The position numbers and the translations under genes were made by a program. Source: Prostheceraeus crozeri (taxonomy: Eukaryota; Platyhelminthes; Polycladida; Euryleptidae). Taken from it: a stretch of 64,000 nt of DNA. The notes beneath the pieces are model-generated. The model made no database searches, had not been told where the DNA came from, and worked only from the letters and a program-made list of their open reading frames with translations. The stretch is from contig CAJQUW010004409.1 of NCBI GenBank assembly GCA_907163375.1, forward strand, positions 124,001 to 188,000. Direction: 5' to 3'. How positions within the stretch are numbered: position 1 is the first letter of the stretch; each line of letters opens with the position of its first letter. Positions 1,679 through 58,843 of this stretch are shown here, piece by piece.

Positions 1679-4130
1679 ATGTCAAGTTCATAATGCCACT
1701 CATAATAGAGGTGGCATGCTTGATGTTGTATTCTCAAGATCTGACGCTCAGCCACTCAATGTTCAGATATCGGATCCTGGAATTTCTGACCATAGTCTAC
1801 TATCTTGGACATTACCAATTCATAGGCCTGCTCCTTTGTATGAGGAAATTCGTTTTCGAAAATGGCGACAGATTGACGTTTCTCACCTGCGAGCGTCACT
1901 GATGGAGACTAAGTTGTGCGGCCCTGCTAATTGGACTGATTGTGATGTTGATCAGCTCGCTCTTCTGTTTGACTCCACCATCAAGTCTATCGTCGATCAA
2001 ATGGCTCCTCTTAAGGTGGTCAATATTCGACGAAGGTCGTCTGATCCATGGTTCGATGAGGACTGTCGGGTAGCAAAGCGCAGTGTTCGACAGCATGAAC
2101 GTCGTTTCCGATCTCTGCAGCGATCTCTTCCATCCACGGATCAAAATACTTTGCTGGTTTCTGAAGCTTTCCTTAAGTGGAAGTAAGTGACCAAGTCATA
2201 CAGAGAAATGCTCAAATCCAAACGCCAATCTTTTTGGTGTGATAAGCTGAAATCACCGAAAGAACTCTGGCGGTCCATCGATAGTATCATGGGTCGTGGT
2301 CGTCCCAAACCTAACCCAGATTTAAAGGCAAGTGATTTTCTCAATTATTATGATCAAAAGATCTCGATGATCAGGCAGCAGACTGGTAATATCTGTCCAG
2401 GAATTACTTCGCAGACTCCAAACTCTATCTTTGAACGATTCGACCCTGTATCGATTGCAGATGTATTCGACGCTTTCCGTGGTCTTCCGAACAAGAGCTC
2501 TACCAGTGATGCTCTACCTGTGAACCTCTTGAAGGACTGTTTGGATATCGTGGCTCCGTTCATTACTTATCTATACAATCTTTCGTTCTCTACTGGAGTC
2601 TTCCCACAATTATGGAAAGTCACTGTCATCACACCTACACTGAAAAATGACAAAATGGATACATCACAAGCTGCATCGTACCGGCCAATTTCAAAACTTA
2701 ATACCCTCTCTAAAGTCATAGAGCGAATTATATCCAATCAGTGTCGAACTTATTTGTTCTCAAACAACTTGTTTCCTGACGTGCAATCGGCTTATCGGAG
2801 ATATCATTCAACGGAAACATCGATACTGAAATTATCCACGGATATTCTCTCGTCATTGGATAATGGTGAATTGTGTCTTTTGGCTTTTTTGGACCTTACC
2901 GCTGCGTTTGACTCCATTGACCATGGAATTCTTACACAACGCCTGAGACTATCCTTTGGTTTTTCTGGTCTAGTTATTTCATGGATACAATCATTCTTGA
3001 GTGATCGACCAGTGTCTGTTCGTGTAGGCGCTTCAACTTCCGATTCCAAGATGTGGAACTGGGGTGTTCCTCAAGGCTCAGTGATGGGGCCGCTTCTTTT
3101 TGTTTTGTATATGGTAGAAGTTATCAATGTTGTTCGTGATCATAACTTCAAGTTGCATATTTACGCGGATGATGTGCAGATTTATGGAGCGTGTTCGCCA
3201 AATGCGACTGATGATCTAGCTGCCGAGATGGCATGTTGTCTAGATGATGTTGTTCAATGGTGCAGTGCAAATCGTCTTCTATTGAATACAGAGAAAACTG
3301 AATTTCTATGGTGTCACTCAGGCAAACGTCGGCGTTCTGTCCCAACAGCGCCCTTGAGAATAGGATCCTCTCATATCCTTCCATCAAATTCAGTGCGCTG
3401 TCTTGGAGTATTCTTGGACTCAGAACTTTCATTCAAGCTAAATATCTCGAAATGTGTGTCATCGTGCTTTGGGATGATGCGCCAGATTCGCAGTATAATC
3501 CCTTATATCCCACGTGATCTACTCCTGACATTGATTACTTCCATGGTCATCTCAAAGTTGGATTACTGCATTCCTGTCATGTATGGAATCCCTGAGCAAC
3601 AAGTGAAGCGATTACAATCTGTGCTAAATGCAGCCGCCCGTATGATTTACGGCACTTCCCGCTATTCGTCAATAACTCCTTTGTTAAATGAATTACAGTG
3701 GCTGCCTATTCGTCAACGTATTGCTTATAGACTATCAGTTCTGACCTTCTGTTGTCGTCGAGAGTGTGCTCCTGATTATCTCAGCTGCTCCCTGGTGGAT
3801 GTCTCCTCTATGCCTGGAAGATCCCGATTGCGGTCTGCAGATTCATTCTGCATTGCGGTCCCATCTTATCGATGCCCAACTTTTGGTGGTAGATCATTTC
3901 CGGTAGCTGCTGCGAGGAGTTGGAACTCACTTCCCCAGAACTTGCGAGCGATTGACAATATGCGTTCCTTCAAGAAACAAGTGAAGAAATACCTTATCGA
4001 TCTTACCTATAAATGACTTTCCTTTGTATCTCTTTTATTTCTATTCTTATATTGTAAATTGTAAAGTGGCCTTGAAGCCTCGTAGCATAATGCCACTCTA
4101 AATATAGTGCATATTTGATTTGATTTGATT
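1679..4130 (+). mobile_element. 5'-truncated CR1/L2-like LINE inserted in Naiad copy 1
   Basis: The left junction follows ..gatgTGAGA and the right junction precedes TGAGAagggtg, a probable 5-bp target duplication at 1674-1678 and 4131-4135. Naiad copy 2 reads straight through this point, so the empty site is visible in the same window. The 3' end is a short TTTGA tandem tail, as expected for a LINE that primes on its own repeats. It is about 99% identical by eye to the full copy at 47736-51204, so the insertion is recent. Confidence 0.9.
1716..4016 (+). pseudogene. CR1/L2-like LINE ORF, 5'-truncated: endonuclease end plus reverse transcriptase
   Basis: The reading frame starts inside the AP-endonuclease domain, where it still shows the catalytic-type GISDHSLLSW motif. 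It continues through the linker into a complete RT with SYRPISKLNTLSKVIER, LDLTAAFDSIDHG, WGVPQGSVMGPLLF and the catalytic HIYADDVQIYG. The end (RSWNSLPQNLRAIDN...) is the usual C-terminus of this LINE group. Compared with the long copy at 47950-51090 it has a TAA stop at about 2185 (Gln codon in the other copy) and an in-frame 12-base loss near 2250. It lacks the N-terminal third, so it is dead on arrival, but its EN keeps SDH where the full-length copy has SDQ. Confidence 0.88.
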
Positions 4131-5221
4131 TGAGAAGGGTGCTGACTACACTTACAGTCTGAATGGACAATATTTTGTAAGTTGGTTCTATCCAACTTGT
4201 TGAGGAATTTGTTATAGTTGCAAATTTTCAATGAGACAGGGTTATTCAGAGAAAAATAGGTTTTGGGCGGGTACTGTTCCCGAACTTTATCAGGTACTAA
4301 ACGATTGAGGCTTTTATCGTGTAAAATACTAGAGATGTCAACCTTGTCCATGATTTTATTTTTGAAATCAAAGACAATATTAGTTTTTTGGACTGCAGGC
4401 TTTCTGGACTCATTGCTAATCACTTTATTGTAGAAATAAGCTGAAAAAATGTAAGCAAACTCGCTAGACACGTTAGTGAGCTTTTGTTTAATGATACGCA
4501 TAGTATCAAAACTCAGAGATCTCAGACATTGATAAAATTTTGACAAGTCTTTGTTGTCAAAGAAATATTTTAATTTGGTCAAAGTATCATTATTATTATT
4601 TCTGTTTCTACTAGATTTCCTAACTCTAATACCATGACTGCGCTTGCGTCTAGGAATTGGACTATTGAAGTAGCTACTTAAATCAACTGTGCCTTTTGAC
4701 ACACATCTGCCTCCTGCTAACTTATCGTTAAGACCTAAAGGATGCAGTGTATTAAGTGTACGAATGTAGTAATCTTCTTGTTTATTAAGCTCCTGTACTA
4801 ATGCAGCTTTATCATTAACATCCTCGATGACGTCAATAATCTGAATGGACATGTCATTACAAGTATGGCTATCATTGCGAAAATGATTAATAATAAAAGT
4901 GCTTTTATTTCCTTTAGAGATGCTATTACGATGTCCATTTAACCTACAATGCAAAGCTTGAGTAGTTTGACCTACGTACTGCAAACCACACTTTTTACAC
5001 GAAATCAGATAAATAACGTTTTTTGTTTTACAATTGAATTTACCCGTCTTATCGAACAAGAACTTTCCACCTGTACTAAAACTAGTGAATGAAGTAGATG
5101 AATCAAAAGCATTACAACATAAACACCTATTGGTCTGACAAGCCTTGAGAGACGTTTGGTTGGTGGGCGCTACCCAATCCTTCGCACTAACACTATATCC
5201 TTTATTAGACTTTGAACCCAT
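4131..5221 (-). CDS. Naiad-type Penelope-like element, copy 1: N-terminal GIY-YIG endonuclease half
   Basis: The minus-strand ORF starts with ATG at 5221. It has Cys-rich residues (NRCLCCNAF) and then a GIY-YIG nuclease: CKTKNVIYLISCKKC, GLQYVGQT, the arginine segment HCRLNGHR, a histidine pair in the NHFRNDSHTC region, and a catalytic-type glutamate in NKQEDYYI. After a basic stretch (PRRKRSHGIRVRKSSRNR) comes the linker with SDCKCSQHPS, the CxC motif, and then the LINE insertion. Endonuclease before RT is the permuted order described for Naiad/Chlamys Penelope elements; canonical Penelopes have it after RT. The nuclease should nick target DNA to prime reverse transcription. The reading frame runs about 120 bases into the LINE, so a protein made now would be a chimera. 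Confidence 0.88.
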
Positions 5222-6143: not shown

Positions 6144-8635
6144 TCAATGAAAGCACGCACAATTATTAAGAAGCTGCTTAGCAGAAAAATATCCGTATTT
6201 CAATAAAGTTTCACTATGCTTATGCAGCTGCTTCTCAGCACTTTGCTTGAGATCTACGCTGTTATATCCTCTCTTAATGAGAGTAGTAGCTGTACGATTG
6301 ACTTTTTGGATGAAATCTCTTTCCAATGTACAGATGCGCCCATATCTTAAAACTTGTCCAGCAAACACTCTAGCTCCTGTCCTGTAGGGCATACAGTTTT
6401 GCGGAAAGGTTAAAAGGGTGACAGGGAAATTAAAATGGTCGACTTTATGAAAAACAGATGTAATTGTGCCACAGTCAGTGACATTTATTGCTAATATCAA
6501 GATATTCTACTTGTTTGTTATTACTCCCACTTCTGCTGGCTTCTAGACTAGGTGGGTAAATCTGTGGTATCAAGGAATCAAACTTTTTATAATTAATAAT
6601 GCATAAATCGTCGATGTATCTAGAAGTATTAGATAATAATCTAGCTAGACCGTACTTCTGATTCTTCATTAAATTAGTCATAAAAATAAATTCACAATGT
6701 AAAAGAAACAAATCCGCAAGAAGAGGACTGCAATTACCACCCATAGGAATGCCTCTTACTTGTTGAAAGACTAAACCTCCGAAAGTAACAAAAACTTCGC
6801 TTATAATGAACTTAATGGCTTCTTTAAATTTATCCTTAGTGAATACGCTATAACCTTGATACCTGACACCTGATAAAAAACTTTTTTCAAAACCTACACA
6901 CAAATATTTCCTATTAGAATCGTTGAAAATTAAGTCGAGCAGGTCGGAAATGTGAGTAATGACATCTTTATGATCCAGATTGGTGTACAAAGTGGAAAAA
7001 TCGAAAATTTGTACGTCATATGCTGTAATGTTTTGAATTTTATTGAGGAATTCAGCGGACGATACTATGCTCCAATAACAGTTTATACCACTATTACTAT
7101 GAATTGCGTTGCAATACTTCCTAAAATGGTCTCTGAAAACAGACAAACCTTTATTAATCTTAATGGAAAGTTGCTTAGTAGTACAGTGCCTAGCACCAGC
7201 TATAAAGCGAAATTTGAAGGGATTTTTATGTAATTTTGGTATCCAATATAATTTTGGGAGTTTTTCATCATCTTTTCTACAAAGGGTGCTGAATAATTTA
7301 CTCATAGAATCCTTATGCCTCTTAACTAAATCACTAGGAGACACATCATATGGAATGTAAGTACTATTACCAATAGGGGTTAGTGAGTTAAGATCGAATC
7401 CAAGTTCTTGTAATAAGACCATAACGTAAAATTTTTTACAGATGAATGCGTAATTACTATTAGCTTTGTCTACGGTAGTTATTATAAAATGCTGATGATA
7501 ATACTTCAAATCTCTGCCGAAATTACGAAAAGATTTAAATTTCGTTTGTAAATTATCTACATTTTTATTTTTATGTATTCTATCTTTAGCTAATACTAGT
7601 ATCCTGTTTTTCCAAGCCTGAAAGTCACTGACTGAAAGTTTAAACTTATTGCACATCTTTGTGATGTGCTTATCTATGGATACAGTTATGCTATCTATAA
7701 CGTCGTTGTGACGAACGGGAAGGGACAAACGGTGCTTAGAGCCTAATGAAAGTAACTCTTTCAGGTCTGGTTGCTCAATAAAATCCAAATCACCAGTAAA
7801 TACATGTTTGTGATGCTCATTGATGTGAGAAGGGTGCTGACTACACTTACAGTCTGAATGGACAATATTTTGTAAGTTGGTTCTATCCAACTTGTTGAGG
7901 AATTTGTTATAGTTGCAAATTTTCAATGAGACAGGGTTATTCAGAGAAAAATAGGTTTTGGGCGGGTACTGTTCCCGAACTTTATCAGTCAACCTTGTCC
8001 ATGATTTTATTTTTGAAATCAAAGACAATATTAGTTTTTTGGACTGCAGGCTTTCTGGACTCATTGCTAATCACTTTATTGTAGAAATAAGCTGAAAAAA
8101 TGTAAGCAAACTCGCTAGACACGTTAGTGAGCTTTTGTTTAATGATACGCATAGTATCAAAACTCAGAGATCTCAGACATTGATAAAATTTTGACAAGTC
8201 TTTGTTGTCAAAGAAATATTTTAATTTGGTCAAAGTATCATTATTATTATTTCTGTTTCTACTAGATTTCCTAACTCTAATACCATGACTGCGCTTGCGT
8301 CTAGGAATTGGACTATTGAAGTAGCTACTTAAATCAACTGTGCCTTTTGACACACATCTGCCTCCTGCTAACTTATCGTTAAGACCTAAAGGATGCAGTG
8401 TATTAAGTGTACGAATGTAGTAATCTTCTTGTTTATTAAGCTCCTGTACTAATGCAGCTTTATCATTAACATCCTCGATGACGTCAATAATCTGAATGGA
8501 CATGTCATTACAAGTATGGCTATCATTGCGAAAATGATTAATAATAAAAGTGCTTTTATTTCCTTTAGAGATGCTATTACGATGTCCATTTAACCTACAA
8601 TGCAAAGCTTGAGTAGTTTGACCTACGTACTGCAA
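6144..8635 (-). pseudogene. Naiad-type Penelope-like element, copy 2: GIY-YIG endonuclease plus RT with frame breaks
   Basis: This minus-strand copy has the same domain order as copy 1: GIY-YIG (starting within GLQYVGQT), basic region, CxC linker (DCKCSQHPS), then a complete RT with RYIDDL and GIPMGGNCSPL, and a C-terminal tail ending at 6144. Three breaks are visible: the 5' end is cut off near 8675 before the first Cys-rich part; 44 bases present in copy 1 near 4287-4330 are missing at about 7987, shifting the frame; and one extra T at about 6487 shifts the frame after YLDIS. It is therefore an inactive, 5'-truncated copy. It preserves the uninterrupted site that shows where the LINE entered copy 1. 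Confidence 0.88.
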
Positions 8636-8781
8636 ACCACACTTTTTACACGAAATCAGATAAATAACGTTTTTTAATAACGTTAAGTTAAGGAATAACG
8701 TTAAGTAATTTCCAAATAATTGAAAATAAAGAAGTCACTCCCTTCTATTTACGACTTTTTATTCCAATAAGTTAAAAAGAA

Positions 8782-13104: not shown

Positions 13105-13440
13105 ATTAATCGGCTTATCGTCTCAAGTCCAATAGCGAATATAGAGGGACAAAGCAGGTGGGATGCCGCATATGTAGCGATTAATCGGCCAAAATCCGAT
13201 ATCGGATATAGAGCGACAAAACAGGTGGGATACCGCATATGTAGCGATTAATCGGCCAAAATCCGATATCGGATATAGAGCGACAAAACAGGTGGGATAC
13301 CGCATATGTAGCGATTAATCGGCCAAAATCCGATATCGGAAATAGAGCGACAAAACAGGTGGGATACCGCATATGTAGCGATTAATCGGCCAAAATCCGA
13401 TATCGAAAATAGAGCGAAATATCAGGTGCAATGCCGAGAC
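13105..13440. repeat. 67-bp tandem repeat, about 5 copies
   Basis: Units contain GCGATTAATCGGCCAAAATC followed by a palindromic CGATATCGG part and GGTGGGATACCGCATATG. The central copies are nearly identical and the outer ones drift. Overlapping short ORFs on the minus strand (MRYPTCFVAL...) come only from the repetition and are not genes. Confidence 0.9.
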
Positions 13441-20965: not shown

Positions 20966-22050
20966 TTAACACTAGAAGCACCAAAATTTTGTCACACCTT
21001 TAAGCACCAATGAGTCAAAAATGACTCACATCTATTTTTCTGGTATTTTGCGGTTTTTTATCCAAGTGAAATGCTTTTGTATTGATATTCATTGCAATTT
21101 CTCGTAATAAAGAGTGTTGCTAAGCAGTTTCACAAAAAGCTGTGATTTTTTTTACATTGCAGGAGGGGATTACAATGGCCTAGCTATAATTTCATATGTA
21201 GAATTAAGAGAGAACAATCAACATGAAGAAATATCATTTAATGTACTTATCTCAACCATTTAATCCTAGGCAAAACGGCAAGTTTTGACACATCAATATA
21301 CATGTATTCAATAGGACATAAACAAGTCAGCGGTCTACTTTCTAAAGTAGGCCTATTTACTTACATGTACATAACAACATATAACCACAAAAGTTCTACT
21401 GGGAGCAAAGTTCAAATATTTTCGCAAATGCTGCAAATGGTAAAACACATCTTCGAGCCATCGGAGTGCTTCCCACAGACATGCTTTGAGCACTTCAAAC
21501 ATTTGGTTGATGACATATTTGTACATTTCTGGATGAGACAATGTGTGCGCTTGCGTGATTCACTCCTCTGAATAGGAAGTGCGGGACGGTTCTCTGCAGC
21601 TTGAAGCCCTGAGCACAATTCTTTTACGAGCAACAGCTGAAATTCGCGACGCGAAATATCACAGTTGTTTGCCAGTTTGTAGATAATCCACGCGTTCAGC
21701 GCACACATGTCTAAAACATTATAAAACACACATACCGGCCACCTGCGTGTTTGACAACGAGTGGACAGCTGTCGAAGCATTTGGTCAACATTGTCAACAC
21801 CACATTTAGTTTGATTATAGAAGTGTATGATTTCTGGCTTTTTCTTTTTGGTCTCTCTCGTCAGTTGAAATATCATCATGCAAAGAACTCAAGAGACAAA
21901 CGGTCTTGCTTTTCTTGCATTTGTATGCTGTGAGAACAGTCTTGCTGCCAGATAAGAAGAATCGAGAATCAAAAATTTGACAGTTCTTCATCAGATTATC
22001 CACATCTGGCTTTTTATTTATTTCTTTTTCTTGTGCCGTCTTAAGCATAA
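20966..22050 (-). mobile_element. piggyBac-like transposon remnant with one end preserved
   Basis: The 20966-20969 TTAA is followed by CACTAGAAGCACCAAAATTT, the type of terminus seen at piggyBac-family ends, and a subterminal GAGTCAAAAATGACTC palindrome. The transposase C-terminus is encoded inside on the minus strand. The other end is missing; a SINE-like segment begins where the coding part ends. Confidence 0.75.
21412..22048 (-). pseudogene. piggyBac-like transposase, C-terminal part
   Basis: Two overlapping minus-strand frames give a continuous C-terminal piggyBac transposase. The upstream frame (21815-22048) has FFLSGSKTVLTAYKCKKSK and CLLSSLHDD. The downstream frame (21412-21879) has KPEIIHFYNQTKCGVDNVDQ, LSTRCQTRRWPVCVFYNVLD and ALNAWIIYK, then a Cys-rich tail with KCTNMSSTKCLKCSKHVCGKH, like the cross-brace zinc finger that binds transposon ends. 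The aspartate of GVDNVDQ, characteristic of the family, is present, but the N-terminal catalytic half is lost and the frame is shifted, so it is inactive. Confidence 0.8.
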
Positions 22051-23794: not shown

Positions 23795-23884
23795 CGGTGA
23801 AACGTTTCCTTCCGAATGGGAATTGAATTACGTAATATTACTGGCGGTAGACTATTAGAATAATGGGACATTGTTTATCAGAGA

Positions 23885-26070
23885 TTGAATTTGAGACCGA
23901 CATATGAGGTCAACCCAAATCATACATTTACACAGTGCAGTGGTCCTATTAACAATGATCATGTGTCACATCTGATCATACTCGTCTCATTTGAAACGTT
24001 AACGCCCAGTCGCCTCTTTTCAAACATCCTCCGCCCCGACTGCTTTGGTCTGCGCTTGATGAGCCAGCATATAGAGCTGCTTTCCTTGACGATCTTCATT
24101 TGGACAAACTCGACTTTGCAGAGTGTTTCAGCAGAGCGGTTGAGTCTGCATCGTCTATCCTTCCACGTCACAAGGCCAACACTCATAAGACATGCTGGGA
24201 ATGTGACTCTAACATCGTCTCGACGTACATTGCAAAGTGCGATTGCTAGACACGGTTTTGATAGTGATGAGGCTAGATCTGCCATCGAATACCTAGAGTC
24301 TACACATGCCAACGCCCTTGAAAAATACGTTACTGAAAGTGTGTGCGTTACTGAAAATTGCCATCATAGCGCTGCGTGGAATGCCATCAACCTTCTCACT
24401 AATAGGGGCCCCCTGCCAAGCCGCCGTACTCGGCGCTTCATCGTTCAGTCATCGCAAGGTTCTCCTCCTCTCCCATTACCGCACAATTCTGAATTCACCC
24501 CCGCTCCCTCCACTCCTTTACTTCCCATTCAAGACTTTGTACCAGCTCATCCTTCAACGTTCAATACCGGACCAATATCTATTGAAGAAGTGAAACATGC
24601 AACCAAAACTACACGCGCGAACACATCTGCTGGTGTGGATGGTATTCCCTCAAGAGTACTGAAGCTACCAGAACTGCTCGAACTAATCTCCAGGGTCCTG
24701 AAAAAACATTGCAGCTTAGGAGGAGATGTGAACGCTAGCATACGTCTACTTTGGCGAACGTCTAGAATAGTCTCTATTCCAAAGAAATCCGACTCCATTT
24801 CTCTAGACAACCAACGTGGAATCGCAATAGAATGCTGTCTGGCAAAACTCCTCAATTCTGTTCTTCGCAACCGTATCTTGCCCTATCTCAATCTCATCCT
24901 TTTGAGTCTGCAAAGCGGTTTTCGTCCAGGACATTCAGCAGTTGAACAGATTGCTTACATCAGAGCTTTAATTGACACCTGCATCCACTGTCTTTATAGA
25001 CTTTCGGAAAGCATTCGACTCTGTAAGCAGGCCGGCTATCTCCTGGATATTGAGTTAATACGGCGTTCCTCCCGCATTAGTCTCCCCTATAATGGATTTT
25101 TACAATAACTCTAGATCGTTCATCCAAACCTCCAGCGGCCCGACTGAGATGTTCGGAACAAGCTCCGGGGTCCTTCAAGGCGACACTTTGTCGCCTTTCC
25201 TCTTCATTGTAGTAGACTACGTTCTTCGTCGGTGCCTCAACGAGGACAACTTCGTTCTAACCCAACGCAGAAGCTCTAGACATCCTGCGATCTCCCTCCC
25301 TGCCTTAGCGTACGCAGATGATATCGCACTTATCTGCAACAAGCTTCCGGCAGCCCAACTCGCGCTCTTAAAGCTGTGTGAAGAGTGTGCACGTGTCGGT
25401 CTTCAAATTAACGCTAGAAAGACCAAGGTCCTATACCTTGGTTTCAACAACACTCCATCACTTTCTCTTACTTCCGGAGAGACAAGTTCTGTATGTAAGG
25501 AATTTAAGTACCTCGGCAGCTGCATCATGTCACAGGACTCCATCTTACACGAGAGAAAATGCTTGGCCTGGCGAGCATCTCACCTTTTGAAGATCTTCAA
25601 CTCCACTGCCCGAGACCGTCTGAAAATACAATTATTTCAATCCATCGTAGAACCCATACTCCTCTACGGTTTAGAAGCAGTTCCAGCTTCTAAGAAGGCA
25701 GGTCATGGATGCTGCTCATAGGTCTCTCCTCCGCAACGCTCTGGGCATGCACTACCCGCAGAAAATCTCGAATAAAGTGCTATTGGCGTGAACTGGTGTT
25801 GCCCCTCTGAGTGTCACCTTTGCGGCAACGTCTGATTGGCCACTGCCTGTGAAGTTTCGGCAGAGGTAGCAAAATTTCGCTTTCCTTGCTCCTCCGAATC
25901 AACCCTCTGAGCATTTTCGAAGAGGAAAAGGCCGGACTCAGACCATAATTGACTGCTTCAAGTCAGACCTACAGGCTCTCAATCTCACTTTTCAGTCTGC
26001 TGTTTGTTGTCCTTCTGTAACTTTCTGTCAGCGTGTGCGCGCAAGGTTGTAACCTCTCGTTAAATATATA
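23885..26070 (+). pseudogene. Decayed LINE reverse transcriptase (clade not resolved)
   Basis: The first frame (to about 25108) has ANTSAGVDGIPSRVLKL, SIPKKSDSISLDNQRGIAIE and LQSGFRPGHSAVEQIAYIRA, a typical non-LTR RT start. The motif FIDFRKAFDSV is still encoded at about 24992-25026 but in another frame, with a stop after WILS. A second frame (25092-25721) carries SSGVLQGDTLSPFLFIVVDY, the catalytic LAYADDIALIC and EFKYLGSCIM. Beyond 25721 more frameshifted C-terminal remains follow to about 26070. The LQGDTLSPFLF wording differs from the CR1-like copies and fits R4/RTE-like LINEs better. No endonuclease domain is visible, so the copy is 5'-truncated. Confidence 0.75.
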
Positions 26071-28062: not shown

Positions 28063-28440
28063 CCGCACGAAAATAAATGGGTGTGTTCTTACGTATGATT
28101 CATACACTTTATCATACGTATGCGAAAAGGGGTATGAAACATGGTATGTTCATACGTGTGAAATGTAACGCTTTTCATACGTATGAATATGTATGTGAAA
28201 TGCATACCTTTGCATACACCGTGCGAAATCAGGCCGTATTAATACGTATGTTCGCATATGCACTTTGCATACCCTTTCATACGTGTGCAAGGGTATGCTT
28301 TTAGCATACGTATGCAGGAACGGCTAATCATACGTACTTTTGCACGTGCGAAATCAGGCCTGGAAGTACTTATGTTCGCATATGCACTTGACATACCCTT
28401 TCATACGTATGCCAGGGTATGCATTTAACATAGTTTTTCA
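28063..28440. repeat. Left subterminal cluster of CATACGTATG palindromes
   Basis: Within about 350 bases there are many copies of CATACGTATG and of close forms (CATACGTGTG, ATACGTATG, GCATATGC). Two sub-blocks are related: GTGCGAAATCAGGCC at about 28220 and again at 28346, each followed by TATGTTCGCATATGCACTT and then CATACCCTTTCATACGT. So a roughly 126-bp unit is duplicated inside the cluster. Confidence 0.85.
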
Positions 28441-28810
28441 TGTTAGTGCTATGAACAGCTAACATACACGTGCTTTTGCTAATGCATACGCGTAGATCCC
28501 ACGTTTAGAAACCCATTATTTGGACGCATGCATTTTGGAAATTGCAATACAAATGAAATTGATTCATGAAGCGCACAGCTTAAAGTACAACTTAGATTGG
28601 ACTGAAGTTGTCCAGAAAAGCTCAATTTGTCTTTGGATGCAACACTCATAAAACTCGGAAAAGGCAGGAGAACATTATATTCTGCAAAAGACTCTATTAC
28701 TAATTACTTTTGTGATGATTGAGAAAATCAAGTCCTTGCGGCACCAAATTGTGCGCTTTTCATCTGTCATTATTGGGTTAAAAAATGGATTACAAATCTG
28801 TTTAGTCTAT

Positions 28811-30898
28811 TCAAAGTTCTTCCAAATCTTCGTTATTTTCACATTCTTCGTCATCTTCTTCGTTTTCTTCAACACTATCCACATCGTCTCCACTTTGCCC
28901 TCCCTTCCGTCGCTTCGCCTCTTGATTCATCTTTCTGACTACTTCATTGACCTTTGTCCCTGTCACTTCAACACCTAAGATCTTCGTCGCCATCGCTGGA
29001 AAGTAAAAAAATGGCATGCATAATATTAATATGCTATAATTAATACATGTACACATGGAAGGCCTGTATAAAAAATTAATCAAATATTCTCAAAATATAT
29101 AATTCTATCTCTATGCATACGTGCTTGACTACACGTGTATACATAATAATCATATAAACAATAATAATAACGTTTATTTCATAAAGTTCCATTAATTGAA
29201 ATCGTAGGGTACAGATATACATGCATTATGTCAAAAAGACAAAATCAGTATGTATTTATACGCATCTTACTAGAATTAACTACAGACATGTTTTCAAGTC
29301 CAAGCAAACAAATGACATATACTGGAGGACTCAGTTACGCATAAGCCACTTACATTCTACTGCGAGCATTCTCTTCCTGTCCATTGCAGGCTTTCCATCA
29401 AAACCTTTAGGGGTTTGAGTTTTCAGCTCTGCCACAGTGAACGCCTCGTTTATCCCTCTTCTGATTGCCCGGGATGCCGAGGCAGCAACCTTTGGCAACA
29501 TGTCCACGCTGTCGATGCATCTTCTGGAGAAGGTCACACCGTTGTAGGTGCACTCCTGAACCGCAGGCGATGGTGTCGACTGCATGGCCTCCAGGCGCTG
29601 GGTCACGGCCGATAGGCGGTCGAAGATCATGCCGATGTCTACACAACAAGAAAAATGCTCTAGAGTCAACTGCATGAATGTCTGAATTGCGGGCGTTGTG
29701 GCATATAAGCAATCTATCTAAGAAATGGAGTCGATAACTTCGGCAATATTTTCAAGCATTTTTGTATTCACACGCATTTCCTGTATGATTTCAATATATT
29801 TATAAAGAAATCGATGAAAAAGTTAATTTTCATGCTTTCAATATACGCGTCTCTTCATGAGGAGGAAAGAAGTTCAGGGCATGCATGAATTTTTATTGTC
29901 AATCAATTACACGTTTGGCATATTTAATGATTATCAATTCGAAGTACAGGCCTCAAAGCAACTAAGCATGCAAAAATAGGAGGTTAAATGTAGTAGTGTA
30001 AAATGGGTCAAAAAGAGGACAATGAACATGTTTTTCGACCAATTCTTATTTTTTTTGTTGATTTTCTTGCGGTTTTCAGCTCTCTCCAAATTAATTCAAA
30101 TTAAAAAATACTGAGAGTTCAACAAATTCCAAACAAGTGTCATGAGTTTTTTTAATTAATGGGATGCGATTAATGGCAGCCGAATTTTGATTTCTTCAAT
30201 CGAAGATGAAAACAGTACTCAAGTAGCATTTATGCTATGGAGAAGAAAAGTCTCTATACGATTTAACAAAACACTAACTTAAATCAGCGAATATTTGTCG
30301 ACGTCATCAACGTCATTGAATATACCTTAAGTCATGAGCCTTAGAAAACTATTGTTCCATTGACGCTTATTTGATTTCTTAGGGCACTATAGAAAAATAT
30401 TCACACTATAAAAAAAACACGAGGAAAAAATGGCGTAAATTCAACTATCAAAAAATCCAGATAGAATAAAGTGGAAAATAATAGAATAAGTTCCAGTGTA
30501 GAGGCTACGTTATCAAAAATGTGCACTGTAGATATTTAAAGGCACCTGATATTGGCCAACTTTATGGGCTTCGTCAATGTCCCAATGTACGAATTTGTCT
30601 CTCAGGCACTGATGAAGTACAGCAAATTCCGAAAAATAGGAGAAAACCAGAAAATAGGAGACCCTAACCGAAAAAATAGGACAAATCTTCAAAAAGTAGG
30701 AATAATAGGAAAAATAGGAGGTCTGTGAGGCCTGGAAGTATATATATGAAAAATGCGGGAACAAGTACCTGACAATTGCCGAATGTTGTCTGCTTGATTA
30801 GAATTCCGCTCTTCCAAAATCGTGTCGAGGAGCACCTTCTCCGTTGCATGGAGCGACCGCCCCTTCACGCGTGTCGAGGAGCACCTTCTCCGTTGCAT
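28811..30898 (-). CDS. Three-exon gene for a BEN-domain-like protein, about 199 residues
   Basis: Model on the minus strand: exon A 30898-30769 (ATG at 30898, donor GTACTTG), exon B 29638-29354 (acceptor TTGTTGTGTAG, donor GTAAGTGG), exon C 28995-28811 (acceptor ACTTTCCAG, TGA stop). All three joins are phase 1 and in frame. The product has a coiled-coil-like start (ILEERNSNQADNIRQL, MIFDRLSAVTQRLEAM), then a domain with RAIRRGINEAFTVAELKTQ, DGKPAMDRKRMLAVE and KVNEVVRKMNQEAKRRK, and a very acidic tail (DDVDSVEENEEDDEE). Spacing and wording (F..EEL, K.ALD..K, ..IN.KCR) resemble BEN DNA-binding domains; this is my reading, not a search result. The first 26 codons lie in the 49-bp minisatellite, so the true start may be elsewhere. 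Likely nuclear and DNA-binding if the call holds. Confidence 0.5.
29999..30768. other. Intron of the BEN-like gene, partly made of AAAATAGGAG repeats
   Basis: No coding sequence. Between about 30630 and 30725 the plus strand repeats AAAATAGGAG-like words five to six times. The rest is AT-rich intron sequence between exon B (ends upstream at 29638) and exon A (30769). Confidence 0.45.
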
Positions 30899-31147
30899 GG
30901 AGCGACCGCCCCTTCACGCGTGTCGAGGAGCACCTTCTCCGTTGCATGGAGCGACCGCCCCTTCACGCGTGTCGAGGAGCACCTTCTCCGTTGCATGGAG
31001 CGACCGCCCCTTCACGCGTGTCGAGGAGCACCTTCTCCGTTGCATGGAGCGACCGCCCCTTCACGCGTGTCGAGGAGCACCTTCTCCGTTGCATGGAGCG
31101 ACCGCCCCTTCACGCGTGTCGAGGAGCACCTTCTCCGTTGCATGGAG
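30822..31147. repeat. 49-bp minisatellite, about 6.6 identical copies
   Basis: The unit starts GTGTCGAGGAGCACCTTCTC and contains GTTGCATGGAGCGACCGCC. Copies are identical by eye. Because 49 is not a multiple of three, successive copies change frame; long plus-strand ORFs here arise from that and are not genes. The last copy merges into exon A of the BEN-like gene. Confidence 0.95.
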
Positions 31148-31487
31148 AACTAGCTGCTTCCTCCTGTTTCATTATCATCAGTGCATTCGAACGAATGACA
31201 CTGATAAAAATCAAAACTCAATCGAACGAACGAACGAATAACATACAGAGACCATGTGATAATGCACTGAAGCCGAGGTGCAGTCCAGGGCCATGAGTCG
31301 ATATCCTTTGTAGACATCTCACTGAAGAGATTCCGGAAGTATGTGACTTTCCGAAATAGACCAATTGTGAATGTAAACGCATAAAAGACAATACAGTAGG
31401 CCTAACTGTATTTTAATTGCATTGTAACTGCACAGTAACTGAATTGTCTTGTATGCGTGTATATGCCCAATTCCACTGATTTTGTTG

Positions 31488-31538
31488 CTAAAATGGAAAT
31501 CTAGTATCATCATCTCCTGCTTCAGTACAATCAAGGTT
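31488..31538 (-). CDS. PP1c: Tentative last exon of the PP1 gene
   Basis: On the minus strand a good acceptor (GCTATTTGCAG) is followed by 17 codons ending in TAG: NLDCTEAGDDDTRFPF. The upstream PP1 exon ends in phase 0 after TTTCAG, so the join is in frame. The tail is unlike the usual ILKPADK... ending and lies inside the transposon-like unit, so it may be an exonised new C-terminus or a chance match. Confidence 0.3.
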   Translation of the reverse strand, partial: NLDCTEAGDDDTRFPF

Positions 31539-31664
31539 CTGCAAATAGCAAAGGCAATTCTCTGCCTTAACATTTAACATGTCAACATTCACACTGGACG
31601 CTTACCTGCTCAGGTTCTTCAGTTGAAACACGCAGCGCATGTGAAAGAAACATTGAAAAGTGTT

Positions 31665-31793
31665 TAAATGCATACTGAACAGACGCATGAATAGGTATGA
31701 ATTTTGCATATCGTTTCATACGCACGATATGGTATGAAAACTTCATACGTATGCTGAATAAGCATGAAAACATACCCATTTATTTTCGTGCGG
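31665..31793. repeat. Right subterminal cluster of CATACGTATG palindromes
   Basis: Contains CATACGTATG at about 31744, several TATGAAA/TTTCATA words, GCATAT and CATACGCACG, and ends in the inverted copy of the left 20-bp terminus. It is shorter than the left cluster. Confidence 0.8.
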
Positions 31794-47949: not shown

Positions 47950-50900
47950 TTGTTGCTTCTACCTACAATCGTCATGTCTGTCCGTTATCGGTATAAAATC
48001 GATGATCTGCGTGACTTTCAACGGAAGCCGTGTGTCTGTGTATCAAGGCAGACAAGACGCCGCCTATGGTACTACGGCATCTATATTAGACATATTCCAT
48101 CTCACACAACGTACAACCATGCTAGTAAGAATTCCTTGTCGTCAAATGATCCGGAACCTCGTCGACAGCAATTTTTGAGAACATTGCAAAGAACTCATCG
48201 CCATATCTTTTCCCCGAGCAAATATCTGACTTTTGGTATGCTCAATGTTCGATCCTTACATCACAAAGTGGATGATGTATTGCAACTTCAGCGTGATAGT
48301 GGTATAAATGTATTCATGATGGTAGAGACCTGGCATGATGACGATTCGGTCTGTATTCGGAAATTTGCACAACATGGGTTTTCTGTGGTCCATCAACCAA
48401 GAGTTCGTGCTAATCCGTATATCCTGACAGTCAACCATGGTGGAGTGGCCGTCGTGAGCACTGGTGTCCGACTTACACGCCTACAAATTGGTGTAGATAC
48501 GAAATCCTTTGAAAATGTATGTGTGAAGATCACGAGTGATTCATTTACTGTCATCATTCTCGTTATTTATCGCACTGGTTCATTATCTGGATTTTTCTCT
48601 GAATTATCATCATTGATGGATCAATTGAGCACCTTCTCTTGTTCAGTTGTAGTGACTGGTGACTTGAATGTTCATTTGGAGAAATCAGATGATCGTAATA
48701 CACGGATGTTAGTTGATTTGTTCCAATCATATGGCTTCGAATGTCAAGTTCATAATGCCACTCATAATAGAGGTGGCATGCTTGATGTTGTATTCTCAAG
48801 ATCTGACGCTCAGCCACTCAATGTTCAGATATCGGATCCTGGAATTTCCGACCAGAGTCTACTATCTTGGACATTACCAATTCATAGGCCTGCTCCTTTG
48901 TATGAGGAAATTCGTTTTCGAAAATGGCGACAGATTGACGTTTCTCACCTGCGAGCGTCACTGATGGAGACTAAGCTGTGCGGCCCTGCTAATTGGACTG
49001 ATTGTGATGTTGATCAGCTCGCTCTTCTGTTTGACTCCACCATCAAGTCTATCGTCGATCAAATGGCTCCTCTTAAGGTGGTCAATATTCGACGAAGGTC
49101 GTCTGATCCATGGTTCGATGAGGACTGTCGGGTAGCAAAGCGCAGTGTTCGACAGCATGAACGTCGTTTCCGATCTCTGCAGCGATCTCTTCCATCCACG
49201 GATCAAAATACTTTGCTGGTTTCTGAAGCTTTCTTTAAGTGGAAGCAAGTGACCAAGTCATACAGAGAAATGCTCAAATCCAAACGCCAATCTTTTTGGT
49301 GTGATAAGCTGAAATCCGAGTTAAAGTCACCGAAAGAACTCTGGCGGTCCATCGATAGTATCATGGGTCGTGGTCGACCCAAACCTAACCCAAATTTAAA
49401 GGCAAGTGATTTTCTCAATTATTATGATCAAAAGATCTCGATGATCAGGCAGCAGACTGGTAATATCTGTCCAGGAATTACTTCGCAGACTCCAAACTCT
49501 ATCTTTGAACGATTCGACCCTGTATCGATTGCAGATGTATTCGACGCTTTCCGTGGTCTTCCGAACAAGAGCTCTACCAGTGATGCTCTACCTGTGAACC
49601 TCTTGAAGGACTGTTTGGATATCGTGGCTCCGTTCATTACTTATCTATACAATCTTTCGTTCTCTACTGGAGTCTTCCCACAATTATGGAAAGTCACTGT
49701 CATCACACCTACACTGAAAAATGACAAAATGGATACATCACAAGCTGCATCGTACCGGCCAATTTCAAAACTTAATACCCTCTCTAAAGTCATAGAGCGA
49801 ATTATATCCAATCAGTGTCGAACTTATTTGTTCTCAAACAACTTGTTTCCTGACGTGCAATCGGCTTATCGGAGATATCATTCAACGGAAACATCGATAC
49901 TGAAATTATCCACGGATATTCTCTCGTCATTGGATAATGGTGAATTGTGTCTTTTGGCTTTTTTGGACCTTACCGCTGCGTTTGACTCCATTGACCATGG
50001 AATTCTTACACAACGCCTGAGACTATCCTTTGGTTTTTCTGGTCTAGTTATTTCATGGATACAATCATTCTTGAGTGATCGACCAGTGTCTGTTCGTGTA
50101 GGCGCTTCAACTTCCGATTCCAAGATGTGGAACTGGGGTGTTCCTCAAGGCTCAGTGATGGGGCCGCTTCTTTTTGTTTTGTATATGGTAGAAGTTATCA
50201 ATGTTGTTCGTGATCATAACTTCAAGTTGCATATTTACGCGGATGATGTGCAGATTTATGGAGCGTGTTCGCCAAATGCGACTGATGATCTAGCTGCCGA
50301 GATGGCATGTTGTCTAGATGATGTTGTTCAATGGTGCAGTGCAAATCGTCTTCTATTGAATACAGAGAAAACTGAATTTCTATGGTGTCACTCAGGCAAA
50401 CGTCGGCGTTCTGTCCCAACAGCGCCCTTGAGAATAGGATCCTCTCATATCCTTCCATCAAATTCAGTGCGCTGTCTTGGAGTATTCTTGGACTCAGAAC
50501 TTTCATTCAAGCTAAATATCTCGAAATGTGTGTCATCGTGCTTTGGGATGATGCGCCAGATTCGCAGTATAATCCCTTATATCCCACGTGATCTACTCCT
50601 GACATTGATTACTTCCATGGTCATCTCAAAGTTGGATTACTGCATTCCTGTCATGTATGGAATCCCTGAGCAACAAGTGAAGCGATTACAATCTGTGCTA
50701 AATGCAGCCGCCCGTATGATTTACGGCACTTCCCGCTATTCGTCAATAACTCCTTTGTTAAATGAATTACAGTGGCTGCCTATTCGTCAACGTATTGCTT
50801 ATAGACTATCATTTCTGACCTTCTGTTGTCGTCGAGAGTGTGCTCCTGATTATCTCAGCTGCTCCCTGGTGGATGTCTCCTCTATGCCTGGAAGATCCCG

Positions 50901-51090
50901 ATTGCGGTCTGCAGATTCATTCTGCATTGCGGTCCCATCTTATCGATGCCCAACTTTTGGTGGTAGATCATTTCCGGTAGCTGCTGCGAGGAGTTGGAAC
51001 TCACTTCCCCAGAACTTGCGAGCGATTGACAATATGCGTTCCTTCAAGAAACAAGTGAAGAAATACCTTATCGATCTTACCTATAAATGA
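47950..51090 (+). CDS. CR1/L2-like LINE polyprotein, 1046 residues, endonuclease His replaced by Gln
   Basis: One open frame. Residues 1-90 are basic. The endonuclease follows: FGMLNVRSLHHKVDD, FMMVETWHDDD, VVVTGDLNVHLEK and GISDQSLLSW. The last motif should be SDH; here CAG encodes Gln, while the truncated sister copy at 1781-1800 has CAT (His). The RT is complete: SYRPISKLNTLSKVIER, LDLTAAFDSIDHG, WGVPQGSVMGPLLF, HIYADDVQIYG. The C-terminus RSWNSLPQNLRAIDN matches copy 1. The frame is intact, but loss of the catalytic histidine predicts a nicking-dead endonuclease, so this copy probably cannot start new insertions by itself. Confidence 0.93.
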   Translation: MLLLPTIVMSVRYRYKIDDLRDFQRKPCVCVSRQTRRRLWYYGIYIRHIPSHTTYNHASKNSLSSNDPEPRRQQFLRTLQRTHRHIFSPSKYLTFGMLNVRSLHHKVDDVLQLQRDSGINVFMMVETWHDDDSVCIRKFAQHGFSVVHQPRVRANPYILTVNHGGVAVVSTGVRLTRLQIGVDTKSFENVCVKITSDSFTVIILVIYRTGSLSGFFSELSSLMDQLSTFSCSVVVTGDLNVHLEKSDDRNTRMLVDLFQSYGFECQVHNATHNRGGMLDVVFSRSDAQPLNVQISDPGISDQSLLSWTLPIHRPAPLYEEIRFRKWRQIDVSHLRASLMETKLCGPANWTDCDVDQLALLFDSTIKSIVDQMAPLKVVNIRRRSSDPWFDEDCRVAKRSVRQHERRFRSLQRSLPSTDQNTLLVSEAFFKWKQVTKSYREMLKSKRQSFWCDKLKSELKSPKELWRSIDSIMGRGRPKPNPNLKASDFLNYYDQKISMIRQQTGNICPGITSQTPNSIFERFDPVSIADVFDAFRGLPNKSSTSDALPVNLLKDCLDIVAPFITYLYNLSFSTGVFPQLWKVTVITPTLKNDKMDTSQAASYRPISKLNTLSKVIERIISNQCRTYLFSNNLFPDVQSAYRRYHSTETSILKLSTDILSSLDNGELCLLAFLDLTAAFDSIDHGILTQRLRLSFGFSGLVISWIQSFLSDRPVSVRVGASTSDSKMWNWGVPQGSVMGPLLFVLYMVEVINVVRDHNFKLHIYADDVQIYGACSPNATDDLAAEMACCLDDVVQWCSANRLLLNTEKTEFLWCHSGKRRRSVPTAPLRIGSSHILPSNSVRCLGVFLDSELSFKLNISKCVSSCFGMMRQIRSIIPYIPRDLLLTLITSMVISKLDYCIPVMYGIPEQQVKRLQSVLNAAARMIYGTSRYSSITPLLNELQWLPIRQRIAYRLSFLTFCCRRECAPDYLSCSLVDVSSMPGRSRLRSADSFCIAVPSYRCPTFGGRSFPVAAARSWNSLPQNLRAIDNMRSFKKQVKKYLIDLTYK

Positions 51091-51204
51091 CTTTCCTTTG
51101 TATCTCTTTTATTTCTATTTCTTATATTGTAAATTGTAAAGTGGCCTTGAAGCCTCGTAGCATAATGCCACTCTAAATATAGTGCATATTTGAATTGAAT
51201 TGAA

Positions 51205-55117: not shown

Positions 55118-56082
55118 GATCACATGAAATCAACGAATTACCTTCGGTTCATACGAATGCTGATGTGCCTACATGTGTGTCAGAGTCGGTGATCTCCTGG
55201 GTCAAGCGTGACCTAAATCCAAAAGAGCGGGGACTTTTTCCAACTGAAAATTCTTTGCAGCTTCCAAATAATCCTGTTGAATGTTTTGAATCGGTGATGA
55301 CTGATGAAATGATTGAGTAGATAGTGGACATGTTCAAAATCGATGCTGCGCAGCGCTACCATGATTTTACGTTTCAGACTGACAAGGTCGAAATTCGTGC
55401 TTTTCTCGGAATTCTTTTTATCTCCGGTTACATCAGTGTTCCACGATGGAGGATGATGTGGCAAGATGATACTGAAACAACAAATTCCTTCGTTTGTAAT
55501 GCGATGTCCAGAGCTCGTTTCGAACTGCTGAAAAAGTATTCACATTTCAGTGACAATGATCAATTGGATAAAAACGACAAGTATGCCAAAGTTCGTCCTT
55601 TATTCGACAAGCTGAGAACCATTTATTCAAATTTAATCAAGGATCACATTCCAGAAAACCTGTGTGTTGATGAAGCAATGGCAAAATATTACGGCAAACA
55701 CAGTGGTAAGCAGTACATTCATAATAAGCCTCAGAAATATGGGTATAAGATTTGGTGTTTATGTGACTCGAAAGGTTACTTAATTGATTTTGATCCTTAT
55801 CAAGGTAAATCGCAGATTGATCCTGAGCTTGGATTGGGAGCAAGTGTAGTTTTGCGTTTGTTAAAAGGTGTACCAGATCTTCCCTGCAATATTTATTGTG
55901 ATCGTTTCTTTATTTCGCTGAAGTTATGTAATCGACTTCTCCGGCAAAATATTAGTTTGACAGGTACCATCATGTCGAACAGAACAACGAAATGCCCATT
56001 GAAAGATCAAAAGGAACTTAAAAAAGAACCAAGGGGCTCTTTTGACTATCGTGTTAACACTATACCATTTCCAATCCAATTT
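55118..56082 (+). pseudogene. piggyBac transposase, catalytic middle part
   Basis: After the LINE fragment the frame reads [19 protein letters not shown]..., with an in-frame TAG at about 55318 before IVDMFKIDAAQRYHDFT. The DDE core follows: FLGILFISGYISVPRWRMMW, NLCVDEAMAKYYGKHSGK with the first aspartate of the VDE motif, QKYGYKIWCLCDSKGYLIDF with the second-domain signature, and LPCNIYCDRFFISLKLCNRL with the next aspartate. It continues to RGSFDYRV, where the IS630-like transposon interrupts it. Family residues are retained, so damage is due mainly to insertions. Confidence 0.9.
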
Positions 56083-56591
56083 CACATAAGTGAAATTCAA
56101 TTTCTCATTAGTGAAATTCAAATTCTCATTCGCGAAATCCTATTTCTCATTCGCGAAATTCGAATTCTCATTCGTGAAACTCAATTTCTCATTCGTGAAA
56201 CTCTATTTCACACTTTATTTTTTAGATAATGTTTTCTCCATTTTAATGCATCTGAATCCTTTCCTAGTCACCAAAGTTAGCGTTGCCTGCTTCAAATAGA
56301 CTTCAGCGCACTTTTGTCATTACTTTAAAGATGTCATTGCGGCATGTTGTGACGTTAACTTGTAAAATCTTCGGGAAGACCATCAAAATCACACGAGTGA
56401 CGGTATCCGCCCAGTCGCATCACTGTGACGTACTGATGTGCAACAATATACGCCTGAACTTAAAATCAGATTTCAATATTTCTGCTGATGAAATAATGTC
56501 TCTTCCGCCTGGTTACGAATGGATTGGCTGTAGAATATAACTATGGCTGTTCATTCTTCGTACTCATGATTCCACTCGCATCTATTCTGAA

Positions 56592-57629
56592 GATGCCTCG
56601 ACAACGACGGTACAACCGTATCAGTCAAACAGTTAGAGAAAAGGTCATGAAATGTTATGAAATGAAGGAGACTGGAAATTGATGTACCGTGTATTGGATG
56701 TTAACACCAGAACCGCATACGAATGGATTAAGAATCAACAAGATAAGCCAAAGCCGAAAGCTGGATCAAATGCAACAAAGAAGATACCTGAGATTATGGA
56801 AAATTTGATGACATGGATTGAAGACGAACCAACGATGTGTGTTGACCGTATTCAGCAACAATTTCACGTCATCGTAGGTAAGAACACCATCAAAAATTGG
56901 TTGGATTGTAAACTCATTTCCCTCGAGAAATTGAGACCTCTTGTTCACAATGTCAACAGCGAAGAAAACAAAGCTCGTCGCATGGTTTATACTGAACGCC
57001 TCATTGAAGCAAGATCGAGTTGTCGAACAATTATTTGGTTGGATGAAGCAAATTTAAATTTATTTTGTGGTCGTACCGAGGGCCGTTCGAAGATCGGATC
57101 GGATCTTGTGTAGTTACATCCTACTTGAAAGGAAGTAACTTGCACTGTATTGCAGCTATGTCGAGTTCCCAGTTGCTCAATTTTACTATTAGGCGTGGTT
57201 CATTCAAGTTGGAAATTTCAATGAATGGTTTCGTGGACTGATCGACTTATGCAACGTTCAAGGCATTGAAAACCTTACATTCGTGATCGACAGCGCCCTT
57301 GCTCGAGCGGAGAATGTGGTGTGCGTGGATGAAAATGTTCAAGTTCTTCGGTTGGCTCCATACTCGTATCTCTTAAATCCCGTCAAGCTGGCATGATTGT
57401 ATTTAAATCGGCAGTGAAGAGAAAATTACGAGAAGCAATGCCCGAAATTTTGAACTGTATACGACAAACAAATGGTCCAACGATCGCTGAATTCCGGATA
57501 CAAACTATGGAGGGCATCGCCATGGAAGCAAAGGATACATTGACAGGTAATAAACTACTGGGGTTTTCCAATCAAGTCGAGAAATATTATCCACGTGTCA
57601 TTCGGATTGATAGTTTATCTGACTTGTGA
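56592..57629 (+). pseudogene. IS630/Tc1-like transposase, several breaks
   Basis: Begins MPRQRRYNRISQTVREKVMK (helix-turn-helix region), stops after ETGN, and continues in another frame with MYRVLDVNTRTAYEWIKNQQ and HVIVGKNTIKNWLDCKL. The DDE core is damaged: RTIIWLDEANLNLFCGRTEG has the first aspartate; a stop follows at 57113; NLTFVIDSALARAENV has the second aspartate (the usual DNAP is DSAL); LAPYSYLLNPVKLA has Lys where the family has Glu. The remainder (SAVKRKLREAMPEIL ...) is in a third frame. The element is inactive. Confidence 0.85.
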
Positions 57630-57977
57630 ATCTTCTGATAATGACACGATTATTCTGTAAAAATTGTTATAATAATAATAATAATGATAATTTATTTATC
57701 ATTAATTGTTATGAATATTGCGTCAACTAATAGACACTAATAGATAAGAACGAACACTACTATATTAGTAATTTATACAAAAAAGTGGCCTTAACATCTT
57801 GTATCTATGACATATGTAACTTATTATATATATTTGTTAATATCCAGCGCTTGTATTTCAATGTGTTAACTAAATAAGATGAATAAGTAATCAAATAATT
57901 TATAGTCCATGAATTGTACTTAATTGATTATTGGTGCTCTTTTCTAAGTATATTTTTAGAAGTTAGCGCCACAACAA
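57630..57977. other. Non-coding interior of the IS630-like element
   Basis: AT-rich; includes an AATAATAATAATAATGATAAT microsatellite-like run at about 57670. No gene. Confidence 0.5.
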
Positions 57978-58259
57978 GCCGCAATGACATCTTTAAAGTA
58001 ATGACAAAAGTGCGCTGAAGTCTATTTGAAGCAGGCAACGCTAACTTTGGTGACTAGGAAAGGATTCAGATGCATTAAAATGGAGAAAACATTATCTAAA
58101 AAATAAAGTGTGAAATAGAGTTTCACGAATGAGAAATTGAATTTCGCGAATGAGAAATAGGATTTCACGAATGAGAAATTGAGTTTCACGAATGAGAATT
58201 CGAATTTCGCGAATGAGAAATAGAGTTTCACGAATGAGAAATTGAATTTCACTGATGTG

Positions 58260-58843
58260 ACCATCGTAGTTGTTTTTAACGATAATAAAGTTTTTCACGT
58301 CGTCAGCACGGCACACGGCATCGAACCTATGTCTGCAGCTTCCCGATGGTCAGCGGCGTCGAAGAAGAAGGTAGCAATAAAACAACCACGATTGATCCAT
58401 GAGTATAACAAATACATGGGGGGTGTAGACAGGATGGACCAATGTCATATTACGCCACTTCCATTCGTTCAAAGAAGTGGTGGTGGCCGTTGTTTTTATT
58501 TGCGATAGAGTCGGCGATGCAAAATGCATGGCAATTACATCGAAAATCTGGACATGATCTGGATCAACTTGCGTTTCGAAGAAATATCGTTCAGAATTAT
58601 CTGTCTCTGGCGCGAACAAAACGACCATATCGAGGAAAACCTCCACAAGCAAAGCACATGAGCCTCGAAAAACGAGTGCCTTTGACTTTGAGGAAATCCA
58701 ATGTGGGTGATCATAACATTGGACCAGCATTTAAACAGAACAGGTGTGCTATGTGTCGAGCAAACATTGAGAAGATGTGTTTGAAATGCTCAGTGAATTT
58801 GCATGAAAGATGTTTTGCTGATTTTCATTCTGTTGGAAACTAA
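58260..58843 (+). pseudogene. piggyBac transposase, C-terminal part with zinc-binding tail
   Basis: Resumes as VTIVVVFNDNKVFHVVSTAHG, then RLIHEYNKYMGGVDRMDQ, the highly conserved piggyBac GGVDRMDQ motif with the third catalytic aspartate. The frame shifts just after MDQ (about 58445) into SYYATSIRSKKWWWPLFLF, MQNAWQLHRKSGHDLDQLAF, and a Cys-rich end NRCAMCRANIEKMCLKCSVN, LHERCFADFH, the cross-brace zinc domain. Stop at 58843. Confidence 0.9.

What the first reader, a model, noticed from the sequence alone, without database searches (positions are those of the whole stretch)
28063..31793. Transposon-like unit carrying a BEN-like gene and dense CATACGTATG palindromes
Twenty identical inverted bases bound a 3.7-kb segment, both ends are filled with CATACGTATG-like palindromes, and the only gene inside has a three-exon model whose product resembles BEN DNA-binding domains. 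BEN proteins bind palindromic DNA, so the gene product might bind the element's own ends. No known transposase is present. This could be a new type of DNA transposon or a captured host regulator.
Basis: partly seen in the sequence, partly recalled or inferred. Interest (0 to 1): 0.8.

Follow-up and report, generated by a model that had tools for sequence, protein, structure and literature searches.

The report
Orphan DNA transposon with palindromic ends
A 3.7-kb stretch inside an intron of a probable phosphatase gene looks like one inserted DNA transposon whose ends are packed with palindromes and which seems to carry a small three-exon gene, but no transposase, no second copy and no measurable kinship to BEN proteins could be shown.

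Summary
The DNA observation holds. Segment 28063-31793 has inverted ends of 20 exact bases (24 of 25 overall); among exact inverted pairs of 18 bases or more, 300-6000 bp apart, only one other, large structure in the window competes. CATAC/GTATG half-sites cluster at both ends and nowhere else. The segment lies in the probable last intron of a PP1-type phosphatase gene, among mobile-element remnants. A three-exon minus-strand gene (199 aa) is plausible: 0 of 1000 local shuffles gave an internal exon as long and well bounded as exon 2. Its 5' end is unsound: exon 1 runs into a perfect 49-bp minisatellite.

The BEN reading is not supported. Pfam finds no BEN domain while it finds 3 of 3 known ones; BEN profiles score the protein no better than its shuffles; the exon-2 model is low-confidence. 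No target duplication beyond 2 bp, no transposase in 23 frames, no second copy in the window; the genome is not held, so copy number is open.

Best reading: a non-autonomous or two-component terminal-inverted-repeat transposon encoding a putative accessory DNA-binding protein. Unproven.

The parts
28063..28087 (+). left terminal inverted repeat, 24 of 25 identical to the right end; outer 20 bases exact
31769..31793 (-). right terminal inverted repeat
28088..28500 (.). left subterminal region: 4 exact CATACGTATG, dense CATAC/GTATG half-sites; contains two diverged, overlapping copies (76%) of about 160 bp, 28149-28308 and 28276-28432; as single strand (28083-28500) folds far better than shuffles (z -6.2)
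31650..31768 (.). right subterminal region: 1 exact CATACGTATG and further half-sites; modest folding excess (31650-31773, z -2.5, 5 of 200 shuffles fold as well)
30769..30898 (-). putative exon 1; the start codon lies inside the minisatellite, so the 5' end is uncertain
29354..29638 (-). putative exon 2, open, with strong acceptor and donor; 0 of 1000 local shuffles give an equal candidate
28811..28995 (-). putative exon 3, ending in an acidic tail and a stop codon
30821..31147 (.). minisatellite, 49-bp unit, 6.7 copies, 100% matches; no minus-strand frame is open through it, whereas three plus-strand frames are (126, 147 and 164 aa, no Pfam match at cut-off)

Best explanation
28063-31793 is one insertion of a terminal-inverted-repeat DNA transposon in the probable last intron of a PP1-type gene. 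It lacks a recognisable transposase, so it is non-autonomous, or one half of a two-component system, and would be moved in trans. Its asymmetric subterminal clusters of CATAC/GTATG half-sites are most likely the binding sites of the protein(s) that pair the ends. The three-exon gene most likely encodes a small accessory DNA-binding protein that recognises those sites and helps or represses an enzyme supplied elsewhere, as TNPA does in CACTA elements. Shown here: the ends, the clustering, the exon signals, the place in the gene. Inferred: that it moved, that the gene is expressed, that its product binds the ends.
For: Inverted ends rare by chance. Half-site clusters just inside both ends and nowhere else in 64 kb. 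A 27-bp stretch alike in direct orientation (85%) between the two subterminal regions, 28257-28283 and 31696-31722. Place between PP1 matches at 32392-32018 and 19151-19065, with a piggyBac fragment (21412-21888) and reverse-transcriptase frames (23864-25721) in the same interval. Exon 2: 0 of 1000 local shuffles have an internal exon candidate as long and as strong, thresholds taken from exon 2 itself. Precedent: CACTA elements have asymmetric palindromic subterminal repeats bound by poorly conserved element-encoded proteins (PMC2613891, passages).
Against: Single copy in hand. No target duplication longer than 2 bp at any of 20 boundary offsets tried, and 2-bp matches turn up at 5 of the 20. 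No transposase remnant. The protein has no detectable relative in what was searched, though none of those collections holds eukaryotic genomes. Codon scores favour the proposed frame over the two other forward frames in all three exons, but 30% of stop-free frames outside the training set score as high as exon 2, and for exon 1 one reverse frame scores higher. No AATAAA or ATTAAA between the stop codon and the left end. The minisatellite disrupts the 5' end.
Confidence: 0.45

Rival explanations
1. The gene is a host sequence captured between transposon ends (transduplication), so its product has nothing to do with the ends.
For: No transposase in the unit. The gene body holds no excess of half-sites: 6 in the middle 3149 bp, 5.4 expected. 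The model keeps introns.
Against: No source gene could be looked for: no eukaryotic genome is held, and the window has no second copy of the exons.
Confidence: 0.25
2. Internally deleted derivative of an autonomous element of a known superfamily: the transposase is lost and the surviving exons are the accessory part.
For: If the ends are read as CACG...CGTG a 2-bp CG repeat flanks them. Asymmetric palindromic subterminal repeats recall CACTA elements (passages).
Against: A 2-bp match is weak; 5 of 20 offsets give one. The CACTA terminus and 3-bp duplication are absent. No transposase remnant.
Confidence: 0.2
3. A true BEN-domain transposon: the encoded BEN protein binds CATACGTATG at the ends.
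For: By eye and in hhalign the stretch IRRGINEAFTVAELKTQTPKG lies on the BEN core. The low-confidence model has two strands then a long helix; two strands followed by helices is the order reported for NACC1 BEN (PMC11472053, passages). Some BEN domains bind palindromes (PMC7764960, passages), and a domain with a BEN-like fold reads the ends of Tn3 transposons (PMC9579193, passage).
Against: No Pfam BEN hit while 3 of 3 known BEN domains hit. 2845 of 20000 shuffles rank above the model on a BEN profile and 115 of 400 score at least as well in hhalign. No PDB sequence match; no usable fold match.
Confidence: 0.1
4. No element: chance or independent repeats, with a spurious gene model.
For: One copy only; no clear target duplication.
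Against: Inverted ends and half-site clusters coincide at both boundaries far beyond the nulls.
Confidence: 0.1

Closest known systems
CACTA (En/Spm) transposons with TNPA-type accessory proteins
   Same: Short inverted ends, asymmetric subterminal repeats able to form palindromes, and a poorly conserved element-encoded protein that binds them (PMC2613891, passages)
   Different: Ends do not begin CACTA, no 3-bp target duplication, no transposase
BEN-domain proteins (NACC1, Insensitive, Elba1, BEND6)
   Same: By eye, a short core stretch and a possible N-terminal strand pair
   Different: No significant profile or sequence match
Tn3-family transposase TnpA (bacterial)
   Same: Only an analogy: its DBD1, with a BEN-like fold, reads the inverted-repeat end (PMC9579193, passage)
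   Different: The unit here encodes no recognisable transposase, and a BEN fold is not shown

Membership tests
Terminal-inverted-repeat DNA transposon | paired terminal inverted repeats | tested here: met
   24 of 25 bases, 20 exact
Terminal-inverted-repeat DNA transposon | target site duplication | tested here: inconclusive
   nothing over 2 bp at 20 offsets, lengths 2-10 tried
Terminal-inverted-repeat DNA transposon | multiple copies with the same ends | not testable with these tools
   no second copy in the window; genome not held
Terminal-inverted-repeat DNA transposon | transposase (autonomous copies) | tested here: not met
   spliced model and 23 of 23 inner frames of 60 aa or more against Pfam: no transposase, no match at a curated cut-off; two frames that cross the ends were not scanned
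CACTA (En/Spm) | CACTA-type termini with 3-bp target duplication | tested here: not met
   ends CCGCACGAAAAT; no 3-bp repeat at 20 offsets
CACTA (En/Spm) | clustered subterminal repeats at both ends | tested here: met
   palindromic folding
BEN-domain protein | match to the BEN profile | tested here: not met
   no Pfam BEN hit, known BEN domains 3 of 3; at shuffle level
BEN-domain protein | BEN fold | tested here: inconclusive
   exon 2 alone, no alignment: pLDDT 54.8, pTM 0.22; two PDB matches, both E above 5 and neither BEN
BEN-domain protein | sequence-specific DNA binding | not testable with these tools
   needs a binding assay

The most novel reading that the evidence does not exclude
A eukaryotic DNA transposon family that encodes its own highly diverged BEN-type protein, whose CATACGTATG binding sites fill both ends, so that end recognition is carried by a protein separate from the (unknown or trans-acting) enzyme.
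Probability: 0.08. Interest if true: 0.7.

Novelty: new member of a known kind. Interest (0 to 1): 0.35.

Why it matters
If other copies carry the same gene and ends, this would be an unclassified transposon family with an element-encoded end-binding protein and no recognisable enzyme, a test case for how accessory proteins and binding-site arrays evolve together. If only the ends recur, it is an ordinary non-autonomous element with a captured gene.

Tried and rejected
BEN membership was tested five ways: Pfam on the whole model, on exon frames and on the putative domain, PDB sequences, a four-sequence BEN profile with 20000 shuffles, hhalign with 400 shuffles, and a structure of exon 2. None supports it. 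Limits: the BEN profile is thin (4 sequences, two of them incomplete); against the PDB it found the chains of the four proteins it was built from and otherwise only four weak matches (E 1.7-2.3), so a very distant BEN is not excluded.

Relatives: none in viral contigs with the model or exon 2, prokaryote genomes or plasmids. The known-BEN alignment found none in viral contigs either, so that collection has little reach here. The phage collection was not searched after the error. Pattern scans with the end: 2 exact hits in viral contigs with 17 bases, 10 with the inner 18, 0 in prokaryote genomes with 23. I judge the 12 viral stretches chance: in the DNA held, 0 of 12 have a CATACGTATG and 0 of 12 have both ends. 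Rfam, at gathering scores, found nothing in the window.

Considered and dropped: that the exons are alternative 3' exons of PP1. The preceding PP1 exon reads as ending in phase 0 (CAG|GTA) while exon 2 needs phase 1, so a direct join would shift the frame. A short CGTCTG/CAGACG match lies outside the ends at unequal distances; it may be chance or part of a longer, damaged inverted repeat.

Weak Pfam matches below every cut-off were ignored: DUF444, DUF2533, 7TM_GPCR_Srh and LntA_helical, DUF2533 and DUF2120, DUF5701, DUF3916 and NUP160_helical, ALE2_N, Sgf11, DUF3399, TerB, zf-HC2 and CX9C.

Full report
What is in the sequence. The ends at 28063-28087 and 31769-31793 are inverted repeats, 24 of 25 identical, the outer 20 exact. 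The 17-base core occurs at only these two places in the window, with up to 3 mismatches allowed. Among exact inverted pairs of 18 bases or more with arms 300-6000 bp apart, this pair stands alone except for one large structure at 56-58 kb; ten Markov nulls gave none at that length. CATACGTATG occurs 5 times in 64 kb, all inside: 4 on the left, 1 on the right. Half-sites CATAC/GTATG number 25 in the left 438 bp, 7 in the right 144 bp and 6 in the 3149 bp between, against 0.75, 0.25 and 5.4 expected from the rest of the window. A palindrome counts as two half-sites, so the Poisson values are too small, but elsewhere, at 10-bp steps, no 438-bp or 144-bp window holds more than 6 or 3. That the same short words crowd just inside both inverted ends is the best argument that the two ends belong to one thing. 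The left end has also grown by duplication (28149-28308 and 28276-28432, 76%), and as a single strand it folds far better than shuffles (z -6.2; right end z -2.5, with 5 of 200 shuffles folding as well).

Where it sits. The unit therefore lies in the probable last intron of a PP1 catalytic-subunit gene. The same interval holds a piggyBac fragment (21412-21888) and two reverse-transcriptase frames (23864-25721). In the window as a whole, 7 of 10 long frames first scanned belong to mobile-element families, 1 is PP1 and 2 have no match. A mobile insertion in an intron is an ordinary find in such a place.

The gene. On the minus strand, exons 30898-30769, 29638-29354 and 28995-28811 join in frame through GT-AG introns to a 199-aa protein with an acidic tail. 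Exon 2 has a strong acceptor and donor. With thresholds taken from exon 2 itself, 0 of 1000 block-wise shuffles gave an internal exon as long and as well bounded, and of 15 other tiles of the window only one did, a tile that holds a LINE reading frame. Codon scores favour the proposed frame over the other two forward frames in all three exons, but 30% of 2532 stop-free frames outside the training set score as high as exon 2, and for exon 1 a reverse frame scores higher, so this does not settle it. Exon 1 is weak: its start codon lies inside a perfect 49-bp minisatellite (30821-31147, 6.7 copies). No minus-strand frame crosses the array openly, while three plus-strand frames do (126, 147 and 164 aa; no Pfam match at cut-off). 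This copy may be damaged at its 5' end, or the true first exon was missed. No polyadenylation hexamer of the two tried was found between the stop codon and the left end.

Is it BEN? But Pfam reports no BEN domain for the model or the putative domain, at E up to 10, while three known BEN domains in the same call hit at 2.7e-20, 1.1e-9 and 1.9e-14. A profile of four BEN domains gives the model 1.5 bits, and 2845 of 20000 shuffles rank above it. hhalign scores the domain 11.7; 115 of 400 shuffles do as well (best 18.7), while the four BEN domains, each left out in turn, score 26.5 to 154.7. AlphaFold2 on exon 2 alone gives pLDDT 54.8, with a helix, two strands and a long helix; strands followed by helices is compatible with the NACC1 description, but the model is too poor to use, and Foldseek gave only two matches with E above 5. 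So BEN is neither shown nor firmly excluded.

How it may work. No reading frame of 60 aa or more wholly inside the unit resembles a transposase in Pfam (23 frames and the spliced model), so movement would need an enzyme in trans. The anatomy, short inverted ends plus asymmetric arrays of palindromic sites, is what CACTA elements show, where the accessory protein TNPA binds the subterminal repeats and such proteins are poorly conserved (PMC2613891, passages read). I infer that the small protein plays such a part. It is not filed as a CACTA member: the terminus and the 3-bp duplication are not met. No flanking duplication beyond 2 bp was found at any of 20 offsets.

What is known. Searches of the paper library for 'BEN domain' with 'transposon' and 'terminal inverted repeats' (1 paper), 'transposase' (12 papers), 'DNA transposon' (2 papers), 'transposable elements' and/or 'Hydra' (1352 papers with at least two terms, 20 listed) and 'Repbase' (0 papers) showed in their listings no BEN-carrying eukaryotic transposon. 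Of these I read single passages of the Tn3 paper and of the Lepidoptera paper (a reference-list entry only). Two further BEN papers were read in passages (PMC11472053; PMC7764960). The founding BEN paper is not held. In bacteria a BEN-like fold reads the ends of Tn3 transposons (PMC9579193, passage), an analogy only.

Verdict. The observation of a transposon-like unit with palindromic ends is sound; the gene is plausible; the BEN claim is not supported; novelty cannot be decided without the genome.

Noticed in passing
19065-40902, minus strand: PP1 catalytic-subunit gene (87% identical to human PP1 alpha over 125 residues) spread over more than 20 kb, with mobile-element remnants in between; the unit lies in its probable last intron.
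   Followed up: partly
55321-58843: A piggyBac transposase frame (55321-56229) seems to be interrupted by a unit with long inverted arms made partly of 21-bp tandem repeats (56073-56209, 58112-58252; longest exact arms 163 bases); by eye its further end may be 58409-58843, where Pfam found nothing.
   Followed up: partly
1677-4100 and 48739-51175: Two copies of one LINE-type element, 99.1% identical over 2437 aligned columns, suggesting recent activity.
   Followed up: partly
1-1679, 4125-5024, 6152-8675: Repeated stretches, 99.6% (1-1679 and 6152-7831) and 95% (4125-5024 and 7820-8675) identical, with a GIY-YIG domain; perhaps Penelope-like (recalled), but the frame 6475-8070 has no Pfam match.
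   Followed up: partly
13128-13428: 67-bp tandem repeat, 4.5 copies, 95% matches.
   Followed up: no
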